This document shows, piece by piece, positions 953-10,505 of a DNA stretch of 53,510 nucleotides. The notes under the pieces are model-generated. The model saw nothing but the letters and a program-made list of their open reading frames with translations, was not told the origin of the DNA and ran no database searches. The translations under genes were made by a program, and so were the position numbers. Position 1 is the first letter of the stretch; every line of letters starts with the position of its first letter. The stretch comes from Chromatiales bacterium (GTDB lineage: Bacteria > Pseudomonadota > Gammaproteobacteria > Thiohalomonadales > Thiohalomonadaceae), in NCBI GenBank assembly GCA_003251535.1, contig QKFD01000032.1, positions 1 through 53,510 on the forward strand, written 5' to 3'.

Positions 953-1064
953 GGGATAAGATCCATCAACTTCAGGTATCAAATAAAGCGACTTTGTTTG
1001 ATTTCTTCATTATTCGCTCCTGATATCAAAAAGCCCCTCCGCATCGAAGCTCCAGTTCACTTGA

Positions 1065-1376
1065 AACGTCGAGGAACTAGAAATATTTCATCCAAAATGG
1101 ATTTCGATCGCTCTTGATAATGAACTTCCTATCTGTTTGGATTTGGATCCGCCGTTTGGCGGTCGTTACGGACAGAGAATAATGGTGGGCTGGGAGAGTG
1201 GAATGCTTACGTTGCTTGCTAATGGGTTTGGTCGTTGGTTAGCTATGGGGCTAGATAAAATGCCTGTAGCGTTGTCTGGGTCTGGAGTGATGTGGCTTCC
1301 GACGATGGATAAAAATCACTTCTCTAATGGACGACAAGCGAGTAGTGTTGTTGGTGGCATGTGTGATGCTATCTAA
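1065..1376 (+). pseudogene. SUKH family remnant (C-terminal half)
   Basis: After an in-frame stop at 1062 the frame reads a protein tail that lines up with the second half of the upstream SUKH gene. PKWISIA, LPICLDLDPP, VGWESG and LLANGFGRWL correspond to LKWIPIA, IPICLDLNPS, VDWEDG and LLAKSFLRWL. No N-terminal half is found in any frame between 953 and 1064, and no plausible start codon with a ribosome binding site precedes the conserved part. I read it as a decayed second copy of a SUKH immunity gene. Expression from the TTG at 1137 is possible but unlikely. Confidence 0.6.
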
Positions 1377-1531
1377 CTCTATTAATTGGTAAAAATGAAC
1401 CCTCTTCAAACAGGGGGTGGGGTTTTGATGATGATGTTTCTGATTGTGGTGAAATAAAAAACGGGGGTTTGAAATGTTGTTCTGGGTGAGAGAGTTGGGA
1501 ATGTGTGGGTTTAAAATATTAGGTTGGTGCG

Positions 1532-1966
1532 ATGAGTCTGTCTGCGTCAATTGAGATTAGGTACAGTGGTGCTTTAGACTTTATTCAGCTCCTTGAATCG
1601 TTGTTTGTCAACGGTTGGTCATGCGTTGATCATGGTTACATATCGTACCTTCCTGTCGGGGATGCCGGTATGTTTAATTGGCAGCAGGGAAATGTAAAAA
1701 ATTGGTCGCGCGTTCGTGATTTGTTGATATTAAAGACGCGGCTGGGGGAAGAACTTGGGATATCTCTTTTTTGGGGGGATGTGGGAGGGGAATTGCTATT
1801 GTCTGGCGATAACGGAAGAATTATTTTTAGTTTAACGTCAGATATTCGGTATCTTCATGCTCATGGCTGGGTGGTCGATTTCTCATGGTATCTCGAAAAG
1901 ATATGTGGCTCGCTCCATCAGTCAGGGGCTCAGATTCTGAGTGTGGACTGCTTACAGTTAAGGTGA
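1532..1966 (+). CDS. Hypothetical protein in immunity-like island
   Basis: A 144-residue acidic, aromatic-rich protein (FNWQQG, SLFWGD, GWVVDFSWYL) with no signal peptide or membrane segment. I do not recognise the family. The AT-rich composition matches the SUKH gene upstream and contrasts with the GC-rich chromosome to the right. Size, composition and position beside SUKH genes are typical of immunity proteins in polymorphic-toxin loci, but that role is inferred from context only. The ATG at 1532 is preceded by only a weak AGG-type ribosome binding site. Confidence 0.5.
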   Translation: MSLSASIEIRYSGALDFIQLLESLFVNGWSCVDHGYISYLPVGDAGMFNWQQGNVKNWSRVRDLLILKTRLGEELGISLFWGDVGGELLLSGDNGRIIFSLTSDIRYLHAHGWVVDFSWYLEKICGSLHQSGAQILSVDCLQLR

Positions 1967-2143
1967 TTTTTGAAAGGGCACACGTGGATTGATCTCTGAT
2001 CGAACCGGCACTGAAGATCAGGAAAAAGTGATGCGACGAGTTGAGCCGGGTGGTGGAATCGAACCACCTGTCATAGGGATGGGGGCTTTGTAACTTATTT
2101 ATTTGGGTGAAGAAAAGGGAGGGGGAGTAGGAAGCACTATCGT

Positions 2144-2467
2144 GTGTGGGATTATGTTGTTGGTCATTCGCCGCTATTGATTAGGCATCCCAAGGAAAAT
2201 GGAGATAGGAACCATGATATCGTATTTGTAGGGGGGTATATGGATCTGCTATCTGTTTTGCATGGGGCACAAGTGGAACGGCCAAGTTTAGAACAGATAA
2301 AGGTTGTGTGTTCTCGATTGGGCAGGATTGTTTCGGAGGAAAATATTTTTGTGGTGCGCGGTGCGTCGGGATGTGGTGTGGTTGTCGCTGCGGCAATGAC
2401 AGGTTTCGAAAATGACTTAGATATGTTTGAGTCTGCGCTTGAGGCCTGGGGCAATGTCAGTACGTAA
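2144..2467 (+). CDS. Hypothetical protein, possible N-terminally damaged immunity protein
   Basis: About 107 residues from a GTG at 2144. The frame stays open upstream to a TGA at 2108, adding a basic stretch ending HYR before VWDYVVGHSPLLIRHPK. That opening, the DIVFVGGYMDL strand and the ENDLDMFESALEAW tail look like a compact alpha/beta domain of a kind often found in toxin-immunity islands, but I cannot name the family. No ATG with a ribosome binding site is visible, so the start may have been lost and the gene may be decaying. Composition matches the AT-rich island. Confidence 0.4.
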   Translation: MWDYVVGHSPLLIRHPKENGDRNHDIVFVGGYMDLLSVLHGAQVERPSLEQIKVVCSRLGRIVSEENIFVVRGASGCGVVVAAAMTGFENDLDMFESALEAWGNVST

Positions 2468-2556
2468 GCCAATCTGACTTGTTTTGATGTTGTTGACTTA
2501 TGTTTTTGATTTATATCAAAGGATGGTTTTTATCGCTATATAGTGCTCTATAAATG

Positions 2557-2766
2557 CTAATGTGCATTGGCTTGTTGGCACTCTGCTTGGGTTCCGAGGC
2601 GCAGCATTATTGTTGCCTCGAAAGCTCCGTCATCTATGGGGGTGAGAGAGGAGCCAGTGGCCAGATACGGACCAGCATTCAAGCAATGAGCGGTAGCCCG
2701 GTTGCCGCCGCCTGAGAGTGCTCCAGTCGAGGTGGTTGTACTTCCTATATATGAGGTATCGGTCAT
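2557..2766 (-). CDS. Small hypothetical ORF, doubtful
   Basis: A 69-residue frame with reasonable codon use and a polar, Thr/Ser/Gly-rich composition. It starts from an ATG whose bases overlap the ATG of the plus-strand gene at 2765, because the CATG palindrome supplies both starts. I recognise no domain. The 297-base stretch 2468-2764 otherwise shows no gene. The divergent overlapping start makes simultaneous use with the 2765 gene unlikely, so this is kept only as a low-confidence candidate. Confidence 0.2.
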   Translation of the reverse strand: MTDTSYIGSTTTSTGALSGGGNRATAHCLNAGPYLATGSSLTPIDDGAFEATIMLRLGTQAECQQANAH

Positions 2767-3157
2767 GTCAGTGGATACGTGCGCGGCCTCTTTTCAGCTG
2801 CTGGAAGAGTCATTATGGCGCGAGGAGACGCGCTTTGATCGGCCGTATATGGAACAGGTGATGGCGGACGATTTTGTTGAGTATGGGCGTTCGGGTCAGA
2901 TCTACGATCGATCCTCCGTGTTGGCGGTGTCGTGCTCGCCTATCGAGGTGGTCATGCCGTTACCTGATTTTCGTGTTCGTCTGTTGTCGGATCATGTTGC
3001 CCAGGTTACTTACGATAGCCATGTGGTGGCGGATGGGGTGGTTTTGTCGGCCCATCGTAGTTCGATCTGGAGCCTGGAACCGGATGGGTGGAAACTGCGT
3101 TTTCATCAGGCGACGCCCTATGTGTCCGCGGTGTCGGCGACAGACGCCACGGGATAA
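2765..3157 (+). CDS. DUF4440 / NTF2-like domain protein
   Basis: A 130-residue protein resembling the DUF4440 branch of the SnoaL/NTF2 cone-shaped fold. An N-terminal helix (LLEESLWREETR) is followed by MADDFVEYGRSG, and the end is a RSSIWSLEPDGWKLRFHQATP strand pair. These match the conserved LM-x-DDF-xE-xG-xSG and S-x-W-x-GW-x-hxFHQ-T features of the family. Members bind small molecules or are enzymes of unknown substrate, so no reaction is assigned. The ATG at 2765 is chosen because GAGG at 2753-2756 lies 8 bases upstream; the frame extends farther upstream without a better start. It converges on the rhodanese gene. Confidence 0.7.
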   Translation: MSVDTCAASFQLLEESLWREETRFDRPYMEQVMADDFVEYGRSGQIYDRSSVLAVSCSPIEVVMPLPDFRVRLLSDHVAQVTYDSHVVADGVVLSAHRSSIWSLEPDGWKLRFHQATPYVSAVSATDATG

Positions 3158-3237: not shown

Positions 3238-3618
3238 CTAAAGGAAGTTGGGTGGTTGAGGCCGTACCACGGCTTTGCCGGTGGCCTCCCAGTTGTCGAA
3301 GCCTCCGCTGAGGGAGCGGACGTGGAGGTAGCCCATCTCTTGTAGGGTTAGGGCCGATAGGGCGGCGCGGCCGCTCGTTTTGCAGTAGACGACGATCCGC
3401 AGGTGGCGCGCCTCTAGTTCCGCCATGTGACTGAGTTGGAACTCTAGTAGGCCGCGGGGGATATTGATGGCGCCGGGTAGGTGGCCGGCTTGAAACTCCT
3501 CTTGTTCGCGCACGTCGAGTAGGAGATCTGCGTTGCGGATCTCGCTCTCGGCGTCACCGATGTCGATCTCTATGATCTGGGCTTGCGCCCGCCGCACCAA
3601 GTCATGGGCCGTTTTCAT
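3238..3618 (-). CDS. Single-domain rhodanese-like sulfurtransferase
   Basis: About 126 residues, one rhodanese domain. LLLDVREQEEF and AGHLPGAINIPRG are the CH2A-type strand and loop. The catalytic Cys sits in VVYCKTSGRAALSA, a six-residue active-site loop ending in Arg. GGFDNWEATG is the usual C-terminal motif. Such proteins carry persulfide sulfur between donors and acceptors. It is the last gene of the minus-strand operon, about 16 bases after the serine acetyltransferase stop. That position next to O-acetylserine and cysteine-synthase-like enzymes suggests work on cysteine-derived sulfur (inference). I prefer the ATG at 3618 over the GTG at 3624. Confidence 0.85.
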   Translation of the reverse strand: MKTAHDLVRRAQAQIIEIDIGDAESEIRNADLLLDVREQEEFQAGHLPGAINIPRGLLEFQLSHMAELEARHLRIVVYCKTSGRAALSALTLQEMGYLHVRSLSGGFDNWEATGKAVVRPQPPNFL

Positions 3619-3634
3619 AGTCACTCTCGCCCTG

Positions 3635-4651
3635 TTAGCTGAAGGCCATGCCCGTGGGGTGGAACAGGGGCGGCGCCATGCCGCCTGGGTGTTTGGCGCG
3701 GTGCTGAAATAGGCGGCGCAGGTCTTTGGTCAATACGTGGCGTCCGCGATCCTCGACGAGCAGGTGGAGCCGGCGGCGCTCCTCTAGGAGGTGGCTCAGG
3801 GAGGAGGGGGGCGATTCCAGAATGAAGACGTGCGGGTCTTCGGCGTGGGAGCTGACGGTGAGGGGGAGCAGGGCGATGCCATCTTCACTGACAATGGAGG
3901 CGCTTGGCTGCTCCACACCGGAGATCTGTAGCATCAATTTGTCACCCAGCCGGACCAAGCCCTGGATGGTGAGGCGATCGAGCGCTACGTCTGCCTCTTT
4001 GATGAACTGGAGCTGATTGACGATGAGCACCCGGACGTTGGCGGCGACATCCTCGGTGACGATGGTATAGGGACCAATGAAGCAGTCATCACCGATATTG
4101 ATGTTGCCCAGGACACGGGCATGTCCGCCGATCTGTACTCGATCACCGATGGTGGGGTGGCGTTTCCCGTCTGGGTTGTTGGAGATGCCGACGGCACCTA
4201 GGGTAACACCGCCTAATATATAGCAGTCGGCGCCGATGTGGGTGGTCTCGCCGATGATGGTGCCCCAACCGTGGTCGATGACGAAGCGGGAGCCGATGCG
4301 TGCTGCGGGGTGGATCTCAATGCCGGTACTCAAGCGGGTACTGGCGGAGAGCCGGTGGGCCAGGGTCTTGCCCGCTTGCCGATCGATTTGAGCAAAGTGA
4401 AATAGCGCATGGGCAACGCGGTAGAGCAGTACGGCACGGAAGGTGGGATATTGGCTGAGGATCAGTTGTGGGTCGCCCCTGGAGGCGGGATCACGCAGTT
4501 CGTAGGCGTAGAGATCATCGATAATTGTGGTGACTAGCGACTCATAGATGGAATCTCTTTGCCCGAACGCTAAGGGGCGCTCCCCCCTGGAGTGGCGGTG
4601 CAGCTCGGTGTGAATAATCTCCTCGATGTATCCCGACAACAGGCTATCCAT
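3635..4651 (-). CDS. Serine O-acetyltransferase with C-terminal extension
   Basis: A 338-residue CysE-type enzyme. It has a helical N-terminal domain (about 1-105) and a left-handed beta-helix of hexapeptide repeats (about 112-205). IDHGWGTIIGET contains the Asp-His pair (His127), and KRHPTIGD supplies the second conserved His (165). The family makes O-acetylserine from serine and acetyl-CoA. The hexapeptide domain is followed by about 118 residues unlike the short CysE tail: a hydrophobic beta-rich part, then basic helices (ERRRLHLLVEDRGRHVLTKD). An AGGAGGT ribosome binding site lies just upstream of the ATG, 14 bases after the exporter gene. The partner enzyme is probably the cysteine-synthase-like protein three genes upstream. 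Because the CysE C-terminus normally mediates binding to CysK and feedback inhibition, the extension may change both (inference). Confidence 0.88.
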   Translation of the reverse strand: MDSLLSGYIEEIIHTELHRHSRGERPLAFGQRDSIYESLVTTIIDDLYAYELRDPASRGDPQLILSQYPTFRAVLLYRVAHALFHFAQIDRQAGKTLAHRLSASTRLSTGIEIHPAARIGSRFVIDHGWGTIIGETTHIGADCYILGGVTLGAVGISNNPDGKRHPTIGDRVQIGGHARVLGNINIGDDCFIGPYTIVTEDVAANVRVLIVNQLQFIKEADVALDRLTIQGLVRLGDKLMLQISGVEQPSASIVSEDGIALLPLTVSSHAEDPHVFILESPPSSLSHLLEERRRLHLLVEDRGRHVLTKDLRRLFQHRAKHPGGMAPPLFHPTGMAFS

Positions 4652-4665
4652 AGTGACCTCCTGAA

Positions 4666-5577
4666 TTAGTCCTGACTGCGCTTGGCGATGTAGATGCCGG
4701 CCAGGCAGATGCCAATGCCGCCCATCTCCAGCGCACCTAACTGTTCACCAAACAGCACCCATGCGTAGAGTGCTGCGATCAGCGGTTGGGTGAGTACCAA
4801 TACGGAAGAGAAACCGGTGGGCAGGTATTTCAGGCACTGTGCCAATAGCCCTTGGCCACCGACATGGGAGAGTGCTGCCAACCCAAACAGGGGGAGTAGT
4901 GCGGCCCACTGGGTGGGGACGATCTGCCGCTCCAGCAGGAGCGCGAGGGGGACCAGTACCAACAGGGAGCCGAAGCTGCTGTGGTACATGATCTGGGCAG
5001 CAGAGCAGGTCCGTCGCAGACGGCTCACGGTGAGCAGGTAGAGCCCGTAGAACAGGGCGGTGGCGACGGCTAGGGCATCACCAATGAGCGCCTGTTCTGA
5101 TGCCGTGATCTTGTTGGCGAGTAGGAGCACAACCCCGCTCACCGCGACTAATAGGCCATAGAGAAAGGTCGATCGCACCTTCTCGCCATAGAGCAACCAG
5201 GCGGTGGGGACCACGATGAATGGCACCAGGTTGGCCAGCAGGTTGGCATTGGCTACGGTGGTGTAGGAGAACGAGATATTCCACAGCGCTAGATCGAGCC
5301 CTAGGAAGATCCCCGCCAGCCATAGAACACCGTTGGCGCGGGCGGGGAGCGGGGGCGCTGAACGGTGGGTTGAGTGGCGCTCGCTCACCATCCATAGGTA
5401 GGCCAGCGGGATGGCGAGGCCGACTCGCCAGGCCCCGGTTGCGATGGGATCGAGGGCGCTTAGTTTGACGAAGATACCGCCCGTGGCCAGAAAGGAGACC
5501 GCCAATAGCACCCCTGAGATGGCCAACCAGCCGACGCTAGGGAGTGCAGGGGATGAGATGGCGAGGCGTTCACTCAT
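4666..5577 (-). CDS. EamA/DMT-family transporter
   Basis: A 303-residue membrane protein with about ten predicted helices in two EamA repeats. The first half has GGIFVKLSALDPIATGAWRV and the second TGFSSVLVLTQPLIAALYAW, both typical drug/metabolite transporter signatures. E. coli EamA exports cysteine and O-acetylserine, and RhtA-type relatives export other amino acids. Its ATG overlaps the AlaX stop by 8 bases (translational coupling), and the serine acetyltransferase follows. Export of the operon's own amino acid product or intermediate is the natural reading, but the substrate is inferred. Confidence 0.88.
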   Translation of the reverse strand: MSERLAISSPALPSVGWLAISGVLLAVSFLATGGIFVKLSALDPIATGAWRVGLAIPLAYLWMVSERHSTHRSAPPLPARANGVLWLAGIFLGLDLALWNISFSYTTVANANLLANLVPFIVVPTAWLLYGEKVRSTFLYGLLVAVSGVVLLLANKITASEQALIGDALAVATALFYGLYLLTVSRLRRTCSAAQIMYHSSFGSLLVLVPLALLLERQIVPTQWAALLPLFGLAALSHVGGQGLLAQCLKYLPTGFSSVLVLTQPLIAALYAWVLFGEQLGALEMGGIGICLAGIYIAKRSQD

Positions 5578-6352
5578 GGTAGCGGGCCAGATCCAGTGAC
5601 GGGTTGGGAAAGGCGATGAGGATGCGTTCGATGCCTTTGCCCATATTGCGACGGCGCAGCTCCAGCGGGCCCACTGCGCCGGTCTCGGTCAGGTGGGTGC
5701 CGCCGCAGGGGATAACGACCCCATCGCACTCCCAGTAGAGCGCCTCTGGCTCCTCTGGGTGGGGATAGACCTGAATGGGGAGATCTCGCTCCACCAGCCG
5801 CGAGGCGATGGCGCCGATCTGTTCCAGCTCCTCTGCCTGAAAGCGGTCGGCCACACCGAAATCGAAACGCGCCGAATCCTCTTTGATATGGCAGCCACGG
5901 ATGTTGGGGATGGCGTCTGGTCGCACCTGTTCGATGGCCATGTAGACCAGGTGGGAGGCGGTGTGGCTGAGGGTGAGACGGGCACGCCGGGTGACGTCGA
6001 TCTCCACCACCACCGGATCCCCGGGCGCCAGGCTGGCGAGGAGTGGTTGATCACCTTCGTCAATGAGGTGGTAGACCACCGTATCGACATTGATGGTGGG
6101 GAAGTTGGATAGAAAGAGCGGTGTGCCGTAGTGCTTTTTGGTGTCGCAAAAGTGGAGCACCGCGCCGTCCTGGGTGGTGAGAGTGCCGATATCGCCCTCT
6201 TGGCCACCCCCTTCGGGGAAGGCGATGGTGCCATCTAGCTCAACGGCGCCCTGTTTGACCTGGACCACGGTGGCCGCGTGGCGCTTGAGCCAATAGTCTT
6301 CGTAATAGTGCTTGCGGGTGGTGCGGCCAAGGGGGTTAGTGCGGGTCGACAT
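5570..6352 (-). CDS. alaX: Stand-alone alanyl-tRNA editing protein (AlaX type)
   Basis: 260 residues homologous to the editing half of alanyl-tRNA synthetase, without the catalytic domain. An N-terminal beta-barrel carries FPEGGGQEGD (about 45-54). The zinc and editing site is HTASH (His130, His134) plus CGGTH (Cys216, His220), all four ligands intact. AlaX proteins hydrolyse Ser- or Gly-tRNA(Ala) in trans. The length fits AlaX with an N-terminal extension domain. It overlaps the PLP enzyme upstream by 17 bases and the exporter downstream by 8, so the three are tightly coupled. Placement between an amino-acid-making enzyme and an exporter suggests protection against mischarging by a serine- or alanine-like amino acid (inference). 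Confidence 0.9.
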   Translation of the reverse strand: MSTRTNPLGRTTRKHYYEDYWLKRHAATVVQVKQGAVELDGTIAFPEGGGQEGDIGTLTTQDGAVLHFCDTKKHYGTPLFLSNFPTINVDTVVYHLIDEGDQPLLASLAPGDPVVVEIDVTRRARLTLSHTASHLVYMAIEQVRPDAIPNIRGCHIKEDSARFDFGVADRFQAEELEQIGAIASRLVERDLPIQVYPHPEEPEALYWECDGVVIPCGGTHLTETGAVGPLELRRRNMGKGIERILIAFPNPSLDLARYHE

Positions 6353-7316
6353 AGGCCTCTCCGTTGTCGTAGATCAAGCTGACGATGACAGCATCGTGGT
6401 AGGCGGGATCGCTGGCCAACTGCTCCACTGCCCAGATGTTGGCGCCGGAGGAGTTGCCGGGAAAGATGCCGTGGCGGCGGGTCCAGGTGCGTTGGGCGCT
6501 GTAGGCATCGGCCTCGGTGCAGTGAAGAAAGCGATCCACTAGCGACTCGTCGAAGGAGGCGGGTTTGACCCCTACAGCAATGCCCTGGAGATTGTGATCG
6601 ATGAAGATCTCCTGGAGGATGTCGCAACCGGCCGGTTGGACGCCGATCACCTCCACCTGTTTGAAGGTCTCCTTCAATGCCCGACCAATGCCACTCAAGC
6701 TGGCGCCCGAGCCTACTCCACCCACCAGCACCACCGGGCGGCCACCCAGCTCTGAATTGGCAGTCAACTGGGCGATGATCTCTGGCCCGGTTTCACGGTA
6801 GTGGGCCTCGACATTGGCGGGGTTGTTGAACTGATCGATGAAGTAGTAGCGCTTGCCTAGCTGCTCGGCCTGCTCCAGGTGCCAGTGGATGACCTCAGCC
6901 GGCTGGGCCCCCTCCTGTAGCATCTCTATGCCGATGAGGTGCGCCCCATACAGCTGTAACACGCGACGCTTGAGTGGACTGAAGCTCATGCCGACGGCCA
7001 GCTCCAGATCGAAGCCAAGGCGGCGCGCCTCAATGGCCAGGCCCACGCCGAGGTTGCCGCCGGTCTTCTCGATAATGGTCTGTCCCGAGTGGGGGGTGAG
7101 GCTTCCGCTGGCGATGGCCTGCTCCACCATCCAGCGGGCGGCGCGGGCCTTGTGGCTGCCACCGCTATTGAAGTTTTCCAACTTGAAGAAACAGCGTGGG
7201 TCGGTGCGCAGTAGTGGTGTGCGACAGCAGCGCGGGCGCGTTGACTCCTCCGTGGAGGAGAGCGCCTGCGCCGAGAATAGGGGGCTAGGGGTTGTGGCGT
7301 GGGCGAGATAACTCAT
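6336..7316 (-). CDS. Cysteine-synthase-like PLP enzyme (fold type II)
   Basis: A 326-residue tryptophan-synthase-beta-type PLP enzyme. Lys56 in NSGGSHKARAA corresponds to the Schiff-base lysine. KTGGNLGVGLA (about 84-94) corresponds to the substrate loop that is TSGNTG in CysK. GGVGSGASLSG (about 199-209) is the phosphate loop, and PGNSSGAN corresponds to the C-terminal G-x-SSGA motif. Substrate-loop and lysine-loop residues depart clearly from classical CysK, so the nucleophile or product may not be sulfide and cysteine. Beta-replacement on O-acetylserine, or a desulfhydrase-type reaction, are both possible. It is the first gene of the operon, with an AGGAG ribosome binding site before the ATG. 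Confidence 0.85.
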   Translation of the reverse strand: MSYLAHATTPSPLFSAQALSSTEESTRPRCCRTPLLRTDPRCFFKLENFNSGGSHKARAARWMVEQAIASGSLTPHSGQTIIEKTGGNLGVGLAIEARRLGFDLELAVGMSFSPLKRRVLQLYGAHLIGIEMLQEGAQPAEVIHWHLEQAEQLGKRYYFIDQFNNPANVEAHYRETGPEIIAQLTANSELGGRPVVLVGGVGSGASLSGIGRALKETFKQVEVIGVQPAGCDILQEIFIDHNLQGIAVGVKPASFDESLVDRFLHCTEADAYSAQRTWTRRHGIFPGNSSGANIWAVEQLASDPAYHDAVIVSLIYDNGEAYVDPH

Positions 7317-7529
7317 AGCGACCGCTCCTTAGTCTGGTGTGGTGTGGCTAGCGTTGTGGCCCTGTGGTGTCTCGCCCACGGTCACTTGAGGGGGGTGGGG
7401 GAGTCCTGCGTCAGAGTTTAGATTGATATGGTTACAATATGAGGATTGTCTTTTATTGCACCCCTGTCTAGCCATATCGCTACCTGCTGACATGCTTCTG
7501 GGGCGCCTTTATAACGAGGTAAATCAGGC
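7317..7529. promoter_or_regulatory. Divergent control region of the MocR gene and AlaX/SAT operon
   Basis: A 213-base gap between divergent starts, AT-rich in the middle. GATATGG (7425-7431) and CCATATC (7472-7478) form a 7-bp inverted pair. Nested between them, ACAAT (7434-7438) and ATTGT (7445-7449) flank a 6-base spacer. These are candidate operator sites for the MocR regulator, which typically controls an adjacent divergent gene. No consensus sigma-70 pair is obvious in either direction. The G-run at 7391-7402 is a separate feature of unknown role. Confidence 0.5.
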
Positions 7530-8921
7530 GTGGTCAAGCGAGAAATTGACACCATATCAATATTGATGGCCGATGGTCTGGAGCCCCAGTTGCCGCGCTA
7601 TAAGGCCATTGCCAATACGATCATTAATGCCATTCGGGCAGGTCAATTGACGGTTGGTAGCAAATTGCCACCCCATCGGCGGCTGGCGGATCGCCTGGGG
7701 GTGACCGTGGGTACTATCAGCCGGGCCTATAGCGAGGTGGAGAAGCTTGGCCTATTGGTGGCCCGCATCGGGGATGGTAGTTACGTGCGCGATCCCGATA
7801 GGGGGGAGCAGGGTCTGTTCCGGGCGGTGATCGACGATGCGCCCAATGTTATCGATCTCAGCCTCAACACCAATATCCCGCTCCACCCTCCCGCGCTGCT
7901 GGCCACCACCCTGGCGCAGGTGGCGGGTGACCCCCGTTGCGCGGCTGAGGTGCTGCGCTATCAACCAGACAGCGGTCTGGGGGCGCATCGGGCGGCGGGT
8001 CTGCGTTGGATGCAGCGTAGTGGTGTGGAGGGGGCGGTGGAGAGTGTGATCGTCACCAATGGGGCACAGCATGGCCTGCTCTGCACCCTGATGGCGGTGA
8101 CTCGCCCCGGTGACTGTGTGGCCGCCGAGGGGTTGAGCTATCCAGGGCTGACAGCGGTGGCACGCCACCTGGGGTTGCGGCTGCGCGGGGTGGCGATGGA
8201 TGCCGAGGGGGTGATCCCAGAGGCGCTGGAGGAGCTTTGTCTCCATAGCACCATCCGGGCCCTGTTCTGCACGCCTACGCTCCACAATCCCACTACGGCG
8301 ATGATGTCAGTGGGTCGGCGCGAGGCGCTCGCCGCCGTCGCCCGGCGCCACAATCTGGTGGTGATCGAGGATGATGTCCACGGCTCCTTGGTGCGTGACC
8401 ACCCGTTGCCCTTACAGGGGCTGGCCCCGGAGCGGACGGTCTTCATCACCAGCCTGAGCAAGGCGATCGCCTCGGGTCTACGGGTGGGGTATCTGTTGGT
8501 CCCGGAGAAGCTGAGGATGAAGATCGCCTTGGCGGTCCGCGCCTCCTGCTGGATGGCGACACCGTTGGTGGTGGAGGTGGCTACGCGCTGGATCGAGGGG
8601 GGAGAGGTTGACCAGTTGATCTCGCTCCAGCGGGAGGAGATCGGACGGCGCAAGGCGCTGGTGGCGCCATGGTTGGCGCCGCTTGAGCATGTGACCCATG
8701 GCGAGGGGTTTCATTTCTGGATCACCCTGCCGGAGCCGTGGCGTGCCAACGAGTTGGCGGAGGAGCTGCGGCACGCTGGCGTGCTGGTAAAACCGGCGGA
8801 CGCCTTTGCCATCGATCAGTTTGAGGCGCCCCAGGCGATCCGGGCCAGTGTCAGTGGTGTGGCGGGGACTGAGCGGTTACAGGAGGGGTTCCGCAAGATC
8901 CATGACCTGCTCGCCTCCTGA
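7530..8921 (+). CDS. MocR-type GntR/aminotransferase-fold transcriptional regulator
   Basis: 463 residues: an N-terminal GntR winged helix (about 20-90; PPHRRLADRLGVTVGTISRAYSEVEKLGL) fused to an aminotransferase class I domain (about 110-460). YQPDSGLGAHR, the CTPTLHNPT segment, IEDDVHG and TSLSKAIASG with the PLP lysine (Lys311) are intact. MocR proteins use PLP or an amino-acid-PLP adduct to sense metabolites. The nearest target is the divergent operon of the PLP enzyme, AlaX, exporter and serine acetyltransferase, so the ligand may be the amino acid that operon handles (inference). The GTG at 7530 is favoured by GAGGT at 7516-7520; an ATG at 7566 is the alternative. Confidence 0.9.
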   Translation: MVKREIDTISILMADGLEPQLPRYKAIANTIINAIRAGQLTVGSKLPPHRRLADRLGVTVGTISRAYSEVEKLGLLVARIGDGSYVRDPDRGEQGLFRAVIDDAPNVIDLSLNTNIPLHPPALLATTLAQVAGDPRCAAEVLRYQPDSGLGAHRAAGLRWMQRSGVEGAVESVIVTNGAQHGLLCTLMAVTRPGDCVAAEGLSYPGLTAVARHLGLRLRGVAMDAEGVIPEALEELCLHSTIRALFCTPTLHNPTTAMMSVGRREALAAVARRHNLVVIEDDVHGSLVRDHPLPLQGLAPERTVFITSLSKAIASGLRVGYLLVPEKLRMKIALAVRASCWMATPLVVEVATRWIEGGEVDQLISLQREEIGRRKALVAPWLAPLEHVTHGEGFHFWITLPEPWRANELAEELRHAGVLVKPADAFAIDQFEAPQAIRASVSGVAGTERLQEGFRKIHDLLAS

Positions 8922-8939: not shown

Positions 8940-9737
8940 TCACTTGGTTTTGCCGGTCCAGATCACAATCTCCACCCGTCGGTTGGCGGCGCGCTGGTCG
9001 GGGGAGTTGTTGTCTTGTAGCGGTTGCACGTCGGCGAGCCCCATCAGCTCCATGCGGCTGGGATTGAGCTGGTCGCCCTCCAGCAGTTGATGCAGTACGG
9101 AACCGGCGCGGGCCGCAGAGAGGTCCCAGTTGGAGCGGAAGCGGGTGGTACTGATGGGGAGGTTATCGGTGTGGCCCACCACATCGATCTTGCCCGGCAT
9201 CGTCGCCAGGCTGTCGCGGATGCGATCCAGCACCGGCAGGAAGCGGGGGTTGAGCTGATCAGAGCCCGAGGGGAAGGAGCCCTGCTCACGGATACGGATG
9301 ACGATGCGGTCCTCGTGGCTCTCGACATCGATCATCCCCTCGGCGATCTCCTGCTCCAGTGCCGCCTTGAGCGCCTCGGTGTGCCGAATCACCTCCAGAT
9401 TGGGCTGCTCTTCGGTGGTGCTCTGACGCACCTCGTTGAGGGGGGTCGGTTCCGGCCGACCTGGGCTGAACTCTTGGGCGATGACGCTGGTCCCCTTGGG
9501 GGGCTCCGGCGCCTCTACCTTGCGCTGCACACCAAAGGCCATCTGCATCGAGCCGGCCATCTGTTTGAACTTGGTCGCCTCGATCTCGGAGAAGGAGAGC
9601 AGCAGGACGAAGAAGCACATCAGCAGTGACATCAGATCGGCAAAGGTCATGACCCAGGCCGGGGCGCCACTCTCCTGCTCTTCCTCCGGGGCGCCGGCCT
9701 CCTCTTCGCACGGTAAGGGCTCCTCTTTGGCTGGCAT
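8940..9737 (-). CDS. motB: Flagellar motor stator protein MotB/PomB
   Basis: 265 residues with an acidic N-terminus and one membrane helix (about 29-49) in WVMTFADLMSLLMCFF, where Asp34 is the ion-binding aspartate. A linker and an OmpA-like peptidoglycan-binding domain follow (about 130-260; VVGHTDNLP and RANRRVEI motifs). The protein anchors the stator to the cell wall and, with MotA, couples ion flow to flagellar rotation. The MTFADLMSLLMCFFVLL segment resembles sodium-type PomB more than E. coli MotB. It lies 9 bases downstream of motA. The Cys at residue 10 is not in a lipobox. Confidence 0.92.
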   Translation of the reverse strand: MPAKEEPLPCEEEAGAPEEEQESGAPAWVMTFADLMSLLMCFFVLLLSFSEIEATKFKQMAGSMQMAFGVQRKVEAPEPPKGTSVIAQEFSPGRPEPTPLNEVRQSTTEEQPNLEVIRHTEALKAALEQEIAEGMIDVESHEDRIVIRIREQGSFPSGSDQLNPRFLPVLDRIRDSLATMPGKIDVVGHTDNLPISTTRFRSNWDLSAARAGSVLHQLLEGDQLNPSRMELMGLADVQPLQDNNSPDQRAANRRVEIVIWTGKTK

Positions 9738-9746
9738 TGTGGCCCC

Positions 9747-10505
9747 CTACTCGTCGTCGATGGTGCGCTTATTGGGTGGGAGATAGCAGACCAGCAGCTC
9801 TTTGACGACCCGCGGGTTGTGGCCGGCCTGCATGGCATTGAGCCCGTCTACCACTAGATTTTTGATGTTGCGCTCCTCCTTACTGCGCATCGCCAGCTTA
9901 TCGGCGATGGGCAGGGCGACCATGTTGGCGATCATGGCGCCGTAGAGGGTGGTGAGCAGTGCCACCGCCATGGAGGGACCGATGGTGGAGGGGTCCTCCA
10001 TGGTGGAGAGCATCTGTACCAGGCCGATGAGGGTGCCGATCATCCCCATGGCGGGGGCGGCATCGCCGATGGCCTTGAAGATCTTCTGCCCCGCCTGGTG
10101 GCGCTCGGTCATCTGGTTGAGGTCTTTGGTGAGTACCTCGCGGATCACCGCCGGTGCGTGGCCGTCGGCCAGCATCTGGAGCCCCTTCTTCAGAAAGGGG
10201 TTGGCCACCTCCATCCCCTCTAAGGCGAGAAACCCCTCCTTGCGCGCCTTCTCCGCCATCTGCGCCATTGCCTCAATCAGCTCATCCGGCGACTCGGCTT
10301 TGTAGAGGAAGGCGCGTAGCGCCACCTTCATGGCGCCGAGGAACTGGCCCAGGCTGAATTTCATCAGGACAGCGGCAAAGGTGCCGCCCATGACGATGAC
10401 CAAGCTGGCCGTATCGACAAACTGGAGGGGGTTGCCGCCTAAGGCGATGGCCCCGCCCATGACGAGGATGCCGGCCACCAGGCCCAGTAGGGTTGCGAGA
10501 TCCAT
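9747..10505 (-). CDS. motA: Flagellar motor stator protein MotA/PomA
   Basis: 252 residues with four membrane helices: two near the N-terminus (DLATLLGLVAGILVMGGAIA and ASLVIVMGGTFAAVLM) and two after a large cytoplasmic loop (APAMGMIGTLIGLVQML and MAVALLTTLYGAMIANMVALP). The cytoplasmic loop between helices 2 and 3 should contact FliG, as in the family. Length and loop fit the PomA/sodium type. It is co-transcribed with motB; no other flagellar gene occurs in the window, so this is an isolated stator operon. Confidence 0.93.
   Translation of the reverse strand: MDLATLLGLVAGILVMGGAIALGGNPLQFVDTASLVIVMGGTFAAVLMKFSLGQFLGAMKVALRAFLYKAESPDELIEAMAQMAEKARKEGFLALEGMEVANPFLKKGLQMLADGHAPAVIREVLTKDLNQMTERHQAGQKIFKAIGDAAPAMGMIGTLIGLVQMLSTMEDPSTIGPSMAVALLTTLYGAMIANMVALPIADKLAMRSKEERNIKNLVVDGLNAMQAGHNPRVVKELLVCYLPPNKRTIDDE

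What the first reader, a model, noticed from the sequence alone, without database searches (positions are those of the whole stretch)
3238..8921. Candidate new system: PLP synthase, AlaX, EamA exporter, extended serine acetyltransferase and rhodanese under a divergent MocR regulator
Five minus-strand genes overlap or abut, so they are one translational unit: a CysK-like PLP enzyme, a free-standing Ser/Gly-tRNA(Ala) deacylase, an amino-acid exporter family member, an O-acetylserine-making enzyme and a sulfurtransferase. A PLP-sensing MocR regulator faces them. Seen directly: gene order, overlaps and intact catalytic motifs. Inference: serine is activated to O-acetylserine, turned by the PLP enzyme into a beta-substituted alanine or cysteine derivative, exported by EamA, and kept out of tRNA(Ala) by AlaX. 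I know of no described system with this exact set.
Basis: partly seen in the sequence, partly recalled or inferred. Interest (0 to 1): 0.72.

Follow-up and report, generated by a model that had tools for sequence, protein, structure and literature searches.

The report
Self-protected amino-acid antimetabolite cassette (predicted)
A small bacterial gene set appears to turn serine into an unusual alanine-like amino acid, pump it out, and carry its own safety enzyme that keeps the compound off the cell's alanine tRNA; related sets turn up, scattered, in other bacteria and on plasmids.

Summary
Observation confirmed: five close-packed minus-strand genes (CysK-like PALP, AlaX, EamA, CysE with C-terminal extension, rhodanese) face a MocR regulator. 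The set is not unique. PALP + CysE + AlaX + an exporter-family gene occur together in all 9 loci found with this PALP subfamily: window, genome G159, four species of one genus, genome G966, a Salmonella plasmid, a Xenorhabdus plasmid. Six of these were found through AlaX; the two found through the PALP (Salmonella, G966) also carry AlaX. The nine PALPs form one side of a 99/98-supported branch and share motifs not seen in ordinary CysK. Exporter and regulator types differ between loci. In a sister species, exporter, PALP and CysE are deleted, leaving a scar, while MocR and AlaX stay intact. In G966 the set lies with adenylation, carrier, halogenase and thioesterase genes. Best reading: serine becomes O-acetylserine, the PALP makes a small beta-substituted alanine, the exporter secretes it, and AlaX strips it from tRNA(Ala), as FthB and FthC do for 4-fluorothreonine. 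Product unknown, no activity shown. The exact six-gene set, the rhodanese and the CysE extension are not general. S. meliloti cysK-alaX-sseA favours a plainer rival.

The parts
6336..7316 (-). CysK-like fold-type-II PLP enzyme (PALP), 326 aa; SHKAR lysine site, TGGNLG in place of TSGNTG, PxGCD motif
   Evidence: predicted OASS-like fold
5570..6352 (-). AlaX-type free-standing alanyl-tRNA editing protein, 260 aa, with GGGQ, HTASH and CGGTH motifs
4666..5577 (-). EamA/DMT-family transporter, predicted exporter, 303 aa
3635..4651 (-). Serine O-acetyltransferase-like protein with a C-terminal extension of about 120 aa that is conserved in G159, 338 aa
3238..3624 (-). Single-domain rhodanese, 128 aa; among the nine loci found beside this PALP subfamily only in the window
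7530..8921 (+). Divergent MocR-type regulator (GntR DNA-binding domain plus aminotransferase-like domain), 463 aa
7317..7529 (.). Intergenic region between MocR and the operon; holds an imperfect inverted pair GATATGGTTA / TAGCCATATC (7425-7434, 7469-7478), possible operator, weak

Best explanation
An accessory cassette for making, exporting and surviving a small non-protein amino acid. The CysE-like enzyme acetylates serine to O-acetylserine (inferred from family). The specialised PALP replaces the acetoxy group by a nucleophile other than, or besides, sulfide, giving a beta-substituted alanine (inferred; nucleophile unknown). The EamA protein exports it (inferred). Because the compound resembles alanine, AlaRS charges it to tRNA(Ala), and AlaX hydrolyses the mischarged tRNA (inferred from AlaX specificity in the literature). 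MocR, a PLP-binding regulator type, senses an amino compound and switches the operon (inferred). Shown here: the gene anatomy, the recurrence of PALP + CysE + AlaX + exporter-family gene, the PALP subfamily, and the loss of the production and export genes with retention of MocR and AlaX in one species.
For: All 9 loci found with this PALP subfamily also have a CysE, an AlaX (within about 8 kb) and an exporter-family gene: window; G159 (EamA-AlaX-PALP-CysE-thioredoxin); G630, G727, G738, G763 of one genus (MocR facing AlaX-MFS-PALP-CysE); G966; Salmonella plasmid (AlaX, PALP-CysE-methyltransferase-AzlC); Xenorhabdus plasmid (AlaX, EamA-CysE-PALP). Two were reached by the PALP and not by AlaX (Salmonella, top hit; G966): 2 of 2 carry AlaX. 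The nine PALPs are one side of a branch (99/98) against 36 others. [ST]GGN is in 9 of 9 against 1 of 53 others (2 of the 53 unreadable), P-x-[GE]-C-D in 9 of 9 against 0 of 53. The genome has two ordinary TSGNTG CysK/CysM-type enzymes besides. In G289, a sister species, MFS, PALP and CysE are gone, a remnant of the MFS start remains (by eye), and MocR and AlaX are intact; AlaX dN/dS of G289 against three sister species is 0.11-0.17, among those three 0.12-0.13. G966 carries an adenylation protein, carrier, chlorinating enzyme (424.8 bits, cut-off 226.3) and thioesterase in the same locus. AlaX plus a LysE exporter also follow annotated coronamic-acid genes on a P. tremae plasmid. Patchy distribution: the window is the only hit among 20 genomes of its order, G966 the only one among 17 of its family.
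Against: No product or activity is known; the PALP could still make cysteine. S. meliloti pSymB has cysK-alaX-sseA with an ordinary-type CysK (TAGNTG) and no CysE in the stretch shown; an SMR efflux gene lies 2.4 kb upstream. So AlaX can sit beside plain sulfur genes. Six of the nine loci were found through AlaX, so their AlaX link is not independent; G159 rang with a profile that held its own sequence. A CysE beside a CysK is ordinary: 8 of 50 generic CysK loci have one, without AlaX. The AlaX tree is weakly resolved (3 of 26 inner branches starred). The G966 AlaX is very diverged (no Pfam match; AlaXM model 43.5 bits) and may serve the halogenated product. The rhodanese has no counterpart beside the other eight PALPs, only a thioredoxin in G159. 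In G289 the deletion may be too recent for AlaX to decay. My confidence was lowered from 0.58 to 0.56 because the PALP-first check is 2 of 2, not 3 of 3.
Confidence: 0.56

Rival explanations
1. Serine overflow and protection module. When serine is high, CysE and the PALP turn it into O-acetylserine and cysteine-like compounds that EamA exports, while AlaX clears Ser-tRNA(Ala). No new antimetabolite is made.
For: AlaX proteins are known to clear Ser- and Gly-tRNA(Ala) (passage in PMC11295145). Xenorhabdus has an L-serine ammonia-lyase in the same region. S. meliloti cysK-alaX-sseA is a plain sulfur-gene neighbourhood.
Against: It does not explain the diverged PALP motifs, the adenylation and halogenase genes in G966, the ValRS gene beside AlaX in Xenorhabdus, the scattered occurrence, or why G289 kept only MocR and AlaX.
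Confidence: 0.21
2. A third, alternative cysteine synthesis operon (CysE + CysM-like enzyme + rhodanese as sulfur supplier), with AlaX and EamA as bystanders.
For: Family and fold are O-acetylserine sulfhydrylase-like; CysE beside CysK is ordinary (8 of 50 generic loci); a rhodanese (window) or thioredoxin (G159) is in the same run of genes.
Against: PALP misses the CysK, CysM and cysKM cut-offs; the TSGNTG loop and the KDR of the lysine site are changed in all nine; none of the 7 operon CysE sequences whose end was read ends in isoleucine (the terminal-Ile rule is recalled); AlaX recurs in all nine loci.
Confidence: 0.12
3. A detoxification operon: the PALP uses O-acetylserine to trap a toxic nucleophile such as cyanide, the rhodanese removes more of it, the product is exported, and AlaX guards against the adduct.
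For: Rhodanese in the window; beta-cyanoalanine synthases belong to the same fold group.
Against: No rhodanese annotated or matched beside the other eight PALPs; no gene I would tie to cyanide was seen in those loci, though no search for such genes was made.
Confidence: 0.07

Closest known systems
4-Fluorothreonine clusters of Streptomyces cattleya and MA37 (FthB fluorothreonyl-tRNA deacylase, FthC exporter); passages seen in PMC7408626, the original paper only as cited there
   Same: Biosynthesis genes travel with a free-standing aminoacyl-tRNA deacylase and an exporter of the toxic amino acid.
   Different: There the deacylase acts on tRNA(Thr) and the amino acid is fluorinated; here the deacylase is AlaX-type and the enzymes are CysE and a CysK-like PALP; product unknown.
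CtdA, canavanyl-tRNA(Arg) deacylase (PMC10018355, start of abstract and passages)
   Same: Stand-alone editing protein protecting from an antimetabolite.
   Different: tRNA(Arg), a different protein family, and an organism that consumes canavanine instead of making it.
Cysteine synthase CysK/CysM and serine acetyltransferase CysE
   Same: Same enzyme families and predicted PALP fold.
   Different: Changed substrate-loop and lysine-site motifs, scores below curated cut-offs, CysE without terminal Ile, tied to AlaX and an exporter-family gene.
D-cycloserine pathway (O-ureidoserine synthase) and SbnA 2,3-diaminopropionate synthase
   Same: CysK-like PALP diverted to a non-protein amino acid; the cycloserine route also starts from O-acetylserine (recalled).
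   Different: SbnA model 177 bits against cut-off 350; none of the partner enzymes of those pathways (recalled) is among the operon's genes.
cysK-alaX-sseA of S. meliloti pSymB
   Same: CysK-like enzyme, AlaX and a sulfurtransferase side by side.
   Different: Ordinary-type CysK that groups with the generic set; no CysE in the stretch shown.

Membership tests
Cysteine synthase (CysK/CysM) | Score above curated family cut-off | tested here: not met
   cysKM 210.5 of 344.15; cysK 192.6 of 350.95; cysM 182.6 of 394.2
Cysteine synthase (CysK/CysM) | TSGNTG substrate loop and S-x-K-D-R lysine site | tested here: not met
   TGGNLG and SHKAR in the window; [ST]GGN and no KDR in 9 of 9 linked PALPs
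Cysteine synthase (CysK/CysM) | Fold-type-II PALP with PLP lysine | tested here: met
   PALP 5e-55; model mean pLDDT 81.6, best match an O-acetylserine sulfhydrylase; lysine conserved
Cysteine synthase (CysK/CysM) | Makes cysteine from O-acetylserine and sulfide | not testable with these tools
   -
SbnA 2,3-diaminopropionate synthase | Score above cut-off and an SbnB partner | tested here: not met
   177.4 of 349.95; no such partner among the operon's genes
AlaX editing proteins | Editing domain with HxxxH and CxxxH metal motifs | tested here: met
   HTASH, CGGTH; phmmer 1e-18 to 2e1b, named an AlaX-M structure in PMC11295145
AlaX editing proteins | NCBIfam AlaXM equivalog cut-off | tested here: not met
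   105.1 of 300; five other linked AlaX tested lie at 43-125 bits
AlaX editing proteins | Hydrolyses misacylated tRNA(Ala) | not testable with these tools
   -
Serine O-acetyltransferase CysE | Score above cysE cut-off | tested here: not met
   150.1 of 210.65
Serine O-acetyltransferase CysE | Hexapeptide repeat domain with the DHGxG and GKRHP stretches (motifs recalled) | tested here: met
   Hexapep 2e-12; conserved columns
EhuR ectoine-utilisation regulator | Score above cut-off | tested here: met
   487.7 of 480
EhuR ectoine-utilisation regulator | Beside ectoine or hydroxyectoine catabolic genes | tested here: not met
   No such gene among the six genes; EutB model only 27.6 of 413 bits for the PALP; the rest of the window was not searched for them
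Self-protected amino-acid antimetabolite cluster (FthB/FthC type, works like) | Biosynthetic enzymes, aa-tRNA deacylase and exporter-family gene in one locus | tested here: met
   9 of 9 loci found
Self-protected amino-acid antimetabolite cluster (FthB/FthC type, works like) | Deacylase acts on tRNA charged with the cluster's own product | not testable with these tools
   -

The most novel reading that the evidence does not exclude
A horizontally exchanged family of minimal cassettes (two enzymes, one exporter, one tRNA-editing immunity protein) makes a so far undescribed O-acetylserine-derived alanine antimetabolite; the PALP subfamily is a new beta-substitution enzyme, MocR reads the compound itself, and strains such as G289 are immune non-producers that kept sensor and antidote after losing the production genes.
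Probability: 0.38. Interest if true: 0.8.

Novelty: new variant of a known kind. Interest (0 to 1): 0.62.

Why it matters
It would give bacterial AlaX proteins a concrete role as self-immunity against an alanine mimic, and it offers a sequence signature ([ST]GGN with P-x-[GE]-C-D, next to AlaX and CysE) for mining new non-protein amino acids. The producer-type and immune non-producer-type species in one genus make the idea directly testable.

Tried and rejected
Tried without gain: the single genome-contig scan used patterns from the window PALP alone and returned 50 loci of generic cysteine synthases; 0 of 50 had an AlaX, EamA or MocR match at 1e-4, while 8 of 50 had a CysE. PALP at strict E-values rang only in the window's genome among 56 and among 274 genomes. 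A profile search of another class gave 0 of 190, which shows little without a positive control. The fold of the extended CysE was poor (mean pLDDT 48.5), so the extension stays unassigned. Promoter scan empty. Three further plasmid PALP hits (H136, H142, H5) were opened: 0 of 3 have AlaX nearby and none has the signature.

Rejected: ectoine catabolism (regulator model just over its cut-off, no ectoine gene in the operon); ordinary cysteine synthase (motifs and cut-offs); the core gene set being unique to this window. Nitroreductase and the 119-aa gene of the one genus were dropped from the cassette because they stay in the species that lost MFS-PALP-CysE. Not in those 17: the nine linked loci, G289 (deleted) and S. 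meliloti (which does have a CysK beside AlaX). Of the 56 plasmid records that matched the window AlaX (many are AlaS), 8 were opened by those hits, plus the Salmonella record by the PALP hit.

Rows dropped before counts: the PALP tree used 45 of 62 rows; L033, L049, L051 and 14 near-duplicate betaproteobacterial rows were left out. In one search L049 is a fragment without a motif and L033 gave a wrong motif match. The dN/dS check used 4 of the 5 species of the genus.

Literature: 10 searches of the held open-licence library. AlaX with O-acetylserine: 0 papers; AlaX with cysteine synthase and tRNA: 1 (listing only, not opened); 'alanyl-tRNA editing protein' with 'gene cluster': 0; at least three of AlaX, MocR, serine acetyltransferase, alanyl-tRNA editing, cysteine synthase family protein, EamA: 0. 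Papers opened: passages of PMC10018355, PMC11295145, PMC6405952, PMC7408626; abstract and outline of PMC5741666.
Full report
WHAT IS THERE. The window holds the operon as described. On the minus strand: PALP 6336-7316, AlaX 5570-6352, EamA 4666-5577, CysE-like 3635-4651, rhodanese 3238-3624; facing them, MocR 7530-8921. Overlaps of 17 and 8 bp and gaps of 14 and 10 bp make one transcript likely, though none is shown. The editing-domain family PF07973 has two other matches in the genome, in frames of 872 and 679 aa (AlaS and ThrRS by size, inferred), so this AlaX is extra. Seven other PALP-family genes lie elsewhere; two of them are ordinary CysK/CysM-type with TSGNTG loops, so the operon PALP is extra too.

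THE PALP IS NOT AN ORDINARY CYSTEINE SYNTHASE BY SEQUENCE. It scores 210, 193 and 183 bits on the cysKM, cysK and cysM models, whose cut-offs are 344, 351 and 394. Its substrate loop reads TGGNLG in place of TSGNTG and its lysine site SHKAR in place of S[IV]KDR. The predicted structure is confident (mean pLDDT 81.6) and its best match is an O-acetylserine sulfhydrylase, so the fold and probably the O-acetylserine chemistry are kept while the active site differs (inferred).

RELATIVES. Searching with the PALP and with AlaX led to eight further loci. G159: EamA-AlaX-PALP-CysE-thioredoxin, AlaX 46% identical, CysE 44% over 321 aa with the same C-terminal extension; the contig ends just upstream of EamA, so a regulator there could be missed. 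G630, G727, G738, G763, one genus: MocR facing AlaX-MFS-PALP-CysE. Salmonella serovar India plasmid: AlaX, then PALP-CysE-methyltransferase-AzlC. Xenorhabdus TH1 plasmid: AlaX, a ValRS, L-serine ammonia-lyase and an EamA-CysE-PALP run; its PALP is 67% identical to the Salmonella one. G966: LysE, CysE, adenylation protein, PALP, EamA, semialdehyde dehydrogenase, then carrier, chlorinating enzyme, AlaX, thioesterase. Salmonella and G966 were reached through the PALP, and 2 of 2 carry AlaX; the other six came through AlaX searches. G159 also rang, but with a profile that contained its own PALP, so that is no independent check.

ONE SUBFAMILY. The nine PALPs are one side of a branch with 99/98 support against 36 others (45 of 62 rows used). 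[ST]GGN is in 9 of 9 against 1 of 53 others, two of the 53 being unreadable; P-x-[GE]-C-D is in 9 of 9 against 0 of 53. AlaX may not follow: the Salmonella/Xenorhabdus and G966 AlaX do not group with the window's, but that tree is weak. Exporters are of different families (EamA, MFS, AzlC), and the MocR of the window and of the one genus are only distantly alike (30% over about 150 aa). A constant enzyme pair with exchangeable exporter and regulator points to a shared task rather than to one inherited block. A CysE beside a CysK is ordinary in itself: 8 of the 50 generic loci have one, without AlaX.

A NATURAL DELETION. In G289, of the same genus, MFS, PALP and CysE are missing; a short remnant of the MFS start follows AlaX (by eye). 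MocR and AlaX remain, AlaX full length with dN/dS 0.11-0.17 to three sister species, against 0.12-0.13 among those three. Production and export genes went together while sensor and AlaX stayed, as expected of an immunity gene. The age of the deletion is not known.

CONTEXT FROM AMINO-ACID TOXIN CLUSTERS. G966's chlorinating-enzyme model scores 424.8 (cut-off 226.3). Its adenylation protein's specificity residues, read by eye, are DFWNIGMVHK, which I recall as a threonine code; no tool computed this. Its AlaX is very diverged (no Pfam match; AlaXM model 43.5 bits). A plasmid of P. tremae has AlaX and a LysE exporter directly after annotated coronamic-acid genes. The best described parallel is 4-fluorothreonine, where FthB deacylates the misacylated tRNA and FthC exports the amino acid (passages of PMC7408626). 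AlaX of the M and L types act on tRNA(Ala) through G3:U70 and clear Ser and Gly (passages of PMC11295145). AlaRS can take up an unusual amino acid: azetidine-2-carboxylate is activated by human AlaRS and ProRS (abstract, PMC5741666).

MECHANISM. Most likely: serine to O-acetylserine (CysE), O-acetylserine to a beta-substituted alanine (PALP), export (EamA), AlaX strips the compound from tRNA(Ala), MocR controls. Only the anatomy and its recurrence are shown; each chemical step is inferred from families. The nucleophile is open. A methyltransferase (Salmonella), a rhodanese (window) or a thioredoxin (G159) joins single members, so products may differ between loci.

AGAINST. S. meliloti has cysK-alaX-sseA with an ordinary-type CysK; no CysE lies in the stretch shown, and an SMR efflux gene lies 2.4 kb upstream. 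The rhodanese is unique to the window among the nine. Six of nine loci were found through AlaX. AlaX in G966 may belong to the halogenated product. Comamonas has an AlaX 49% identical but holding a stop codon, an EamA gene about 2.4 kb away, and no PALP or CysE match nearby. Of 17 other AlaX loci tested, 0 have a PALP or CysE match nearby, so most AlaX seen here have nothing to do with this.

DISTRIBUTION. Rare and scattered in the samples searched: 3 of 312 genomes of the class sample at E <= 1e-85, namely the window, G159 (both in the profile) and G966; only the window among 20 genomes of its order; only G966 among 17 of its family; 0 of 190 in another class (no positive control). Five of 151 genomes in one family have the close AlaX, all in one genus. 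In the order of G159, 4 of 147 genomes rang with the AlaX profile at 1e-35: G159 at 6e-123 and three at 1e-39 to 1e-43, whose loci have no PALP or CysE match. Two of nine linked loci are on plasmids.

NOVELTY. I found no description of this gene set in the held open-licence library (and the other six searches; the one paper listed was not opened). As a kind it resembles the fluorothreonine clusters; the enzyme pair, the AlaX immunity and the PALP subfamily look new. I rate it a new variant of a known kind. The confidence of the best explanation was lowered slightly (0.58 to 0.56) when the PALP-first check was recounted as 2 of 2.

Noticed in passing
L113:753-10706 (G966): Compact cluster with adenylation protein (eye-read threonine-like code), carrier, chlorinating enzyme, AlaX, thioesterase, LysE and EamA transporters and a semialdehyde dehydrogenase: looks like a free chlorinated amino acid pathway.
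   Followed up: partly
L059:1-6263 (Pseudomonas tremae plasmid p1): Annotated coronamic-acid genes are followed directly by an AlaX and a LysE exporter, suggesting tRNA editing as self-protection there too.
   Followed up: no
L109:34-9059 (Xenorhabdus TH1 plasmid): A valyl-tRNA synthetase gene sits between AlaX and the serine ammonia-lyase; a possible resistant target copy.
   Followed up: no
L077:5558-8557 (G289): Deletion of MFS-PALP-CysE with a short MFS remnant; MocR and AlaX kept intact.
   Followed up: yes
L060:3977-6921 (S. meliloti pSymB): cysK-alaX-sseA in a row, with an ordinary-type CysK: AlaX beside plain sulfur genes.
   Followed up: partly
L057:4443-8527 (Cetobacterium plasmid): MocR facing an AlaX, followed by a hydroxylamine reductase gene, without a PALP or CysE match in the stretch.
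   Followed up: partly
L061:4061-6894 (Legionella hackeliae plasmid): AlaX next to a YbaK/EbsC-family gene and phosphotransferase genes among several acetyltransferases.
   Followed up: no
L056:7001-7747 (Comamonas plasmid): AlaX 49% identical to the window's holds an internal stop codon; an EamA gene lies about 2.4 kb away but no PALP match.
   Followed up: partly
1001-3000: G+C drops to 44-49% just left of the operon against mostly 60-69% in the rest of the window; a possible edge of inserted DNA.
   Followed up: no
8940-10505: Two minus-strand ORFs beside MocR look like the MotB/MotA flagellar motor pair (by eye, no family search).
   Followed up: no
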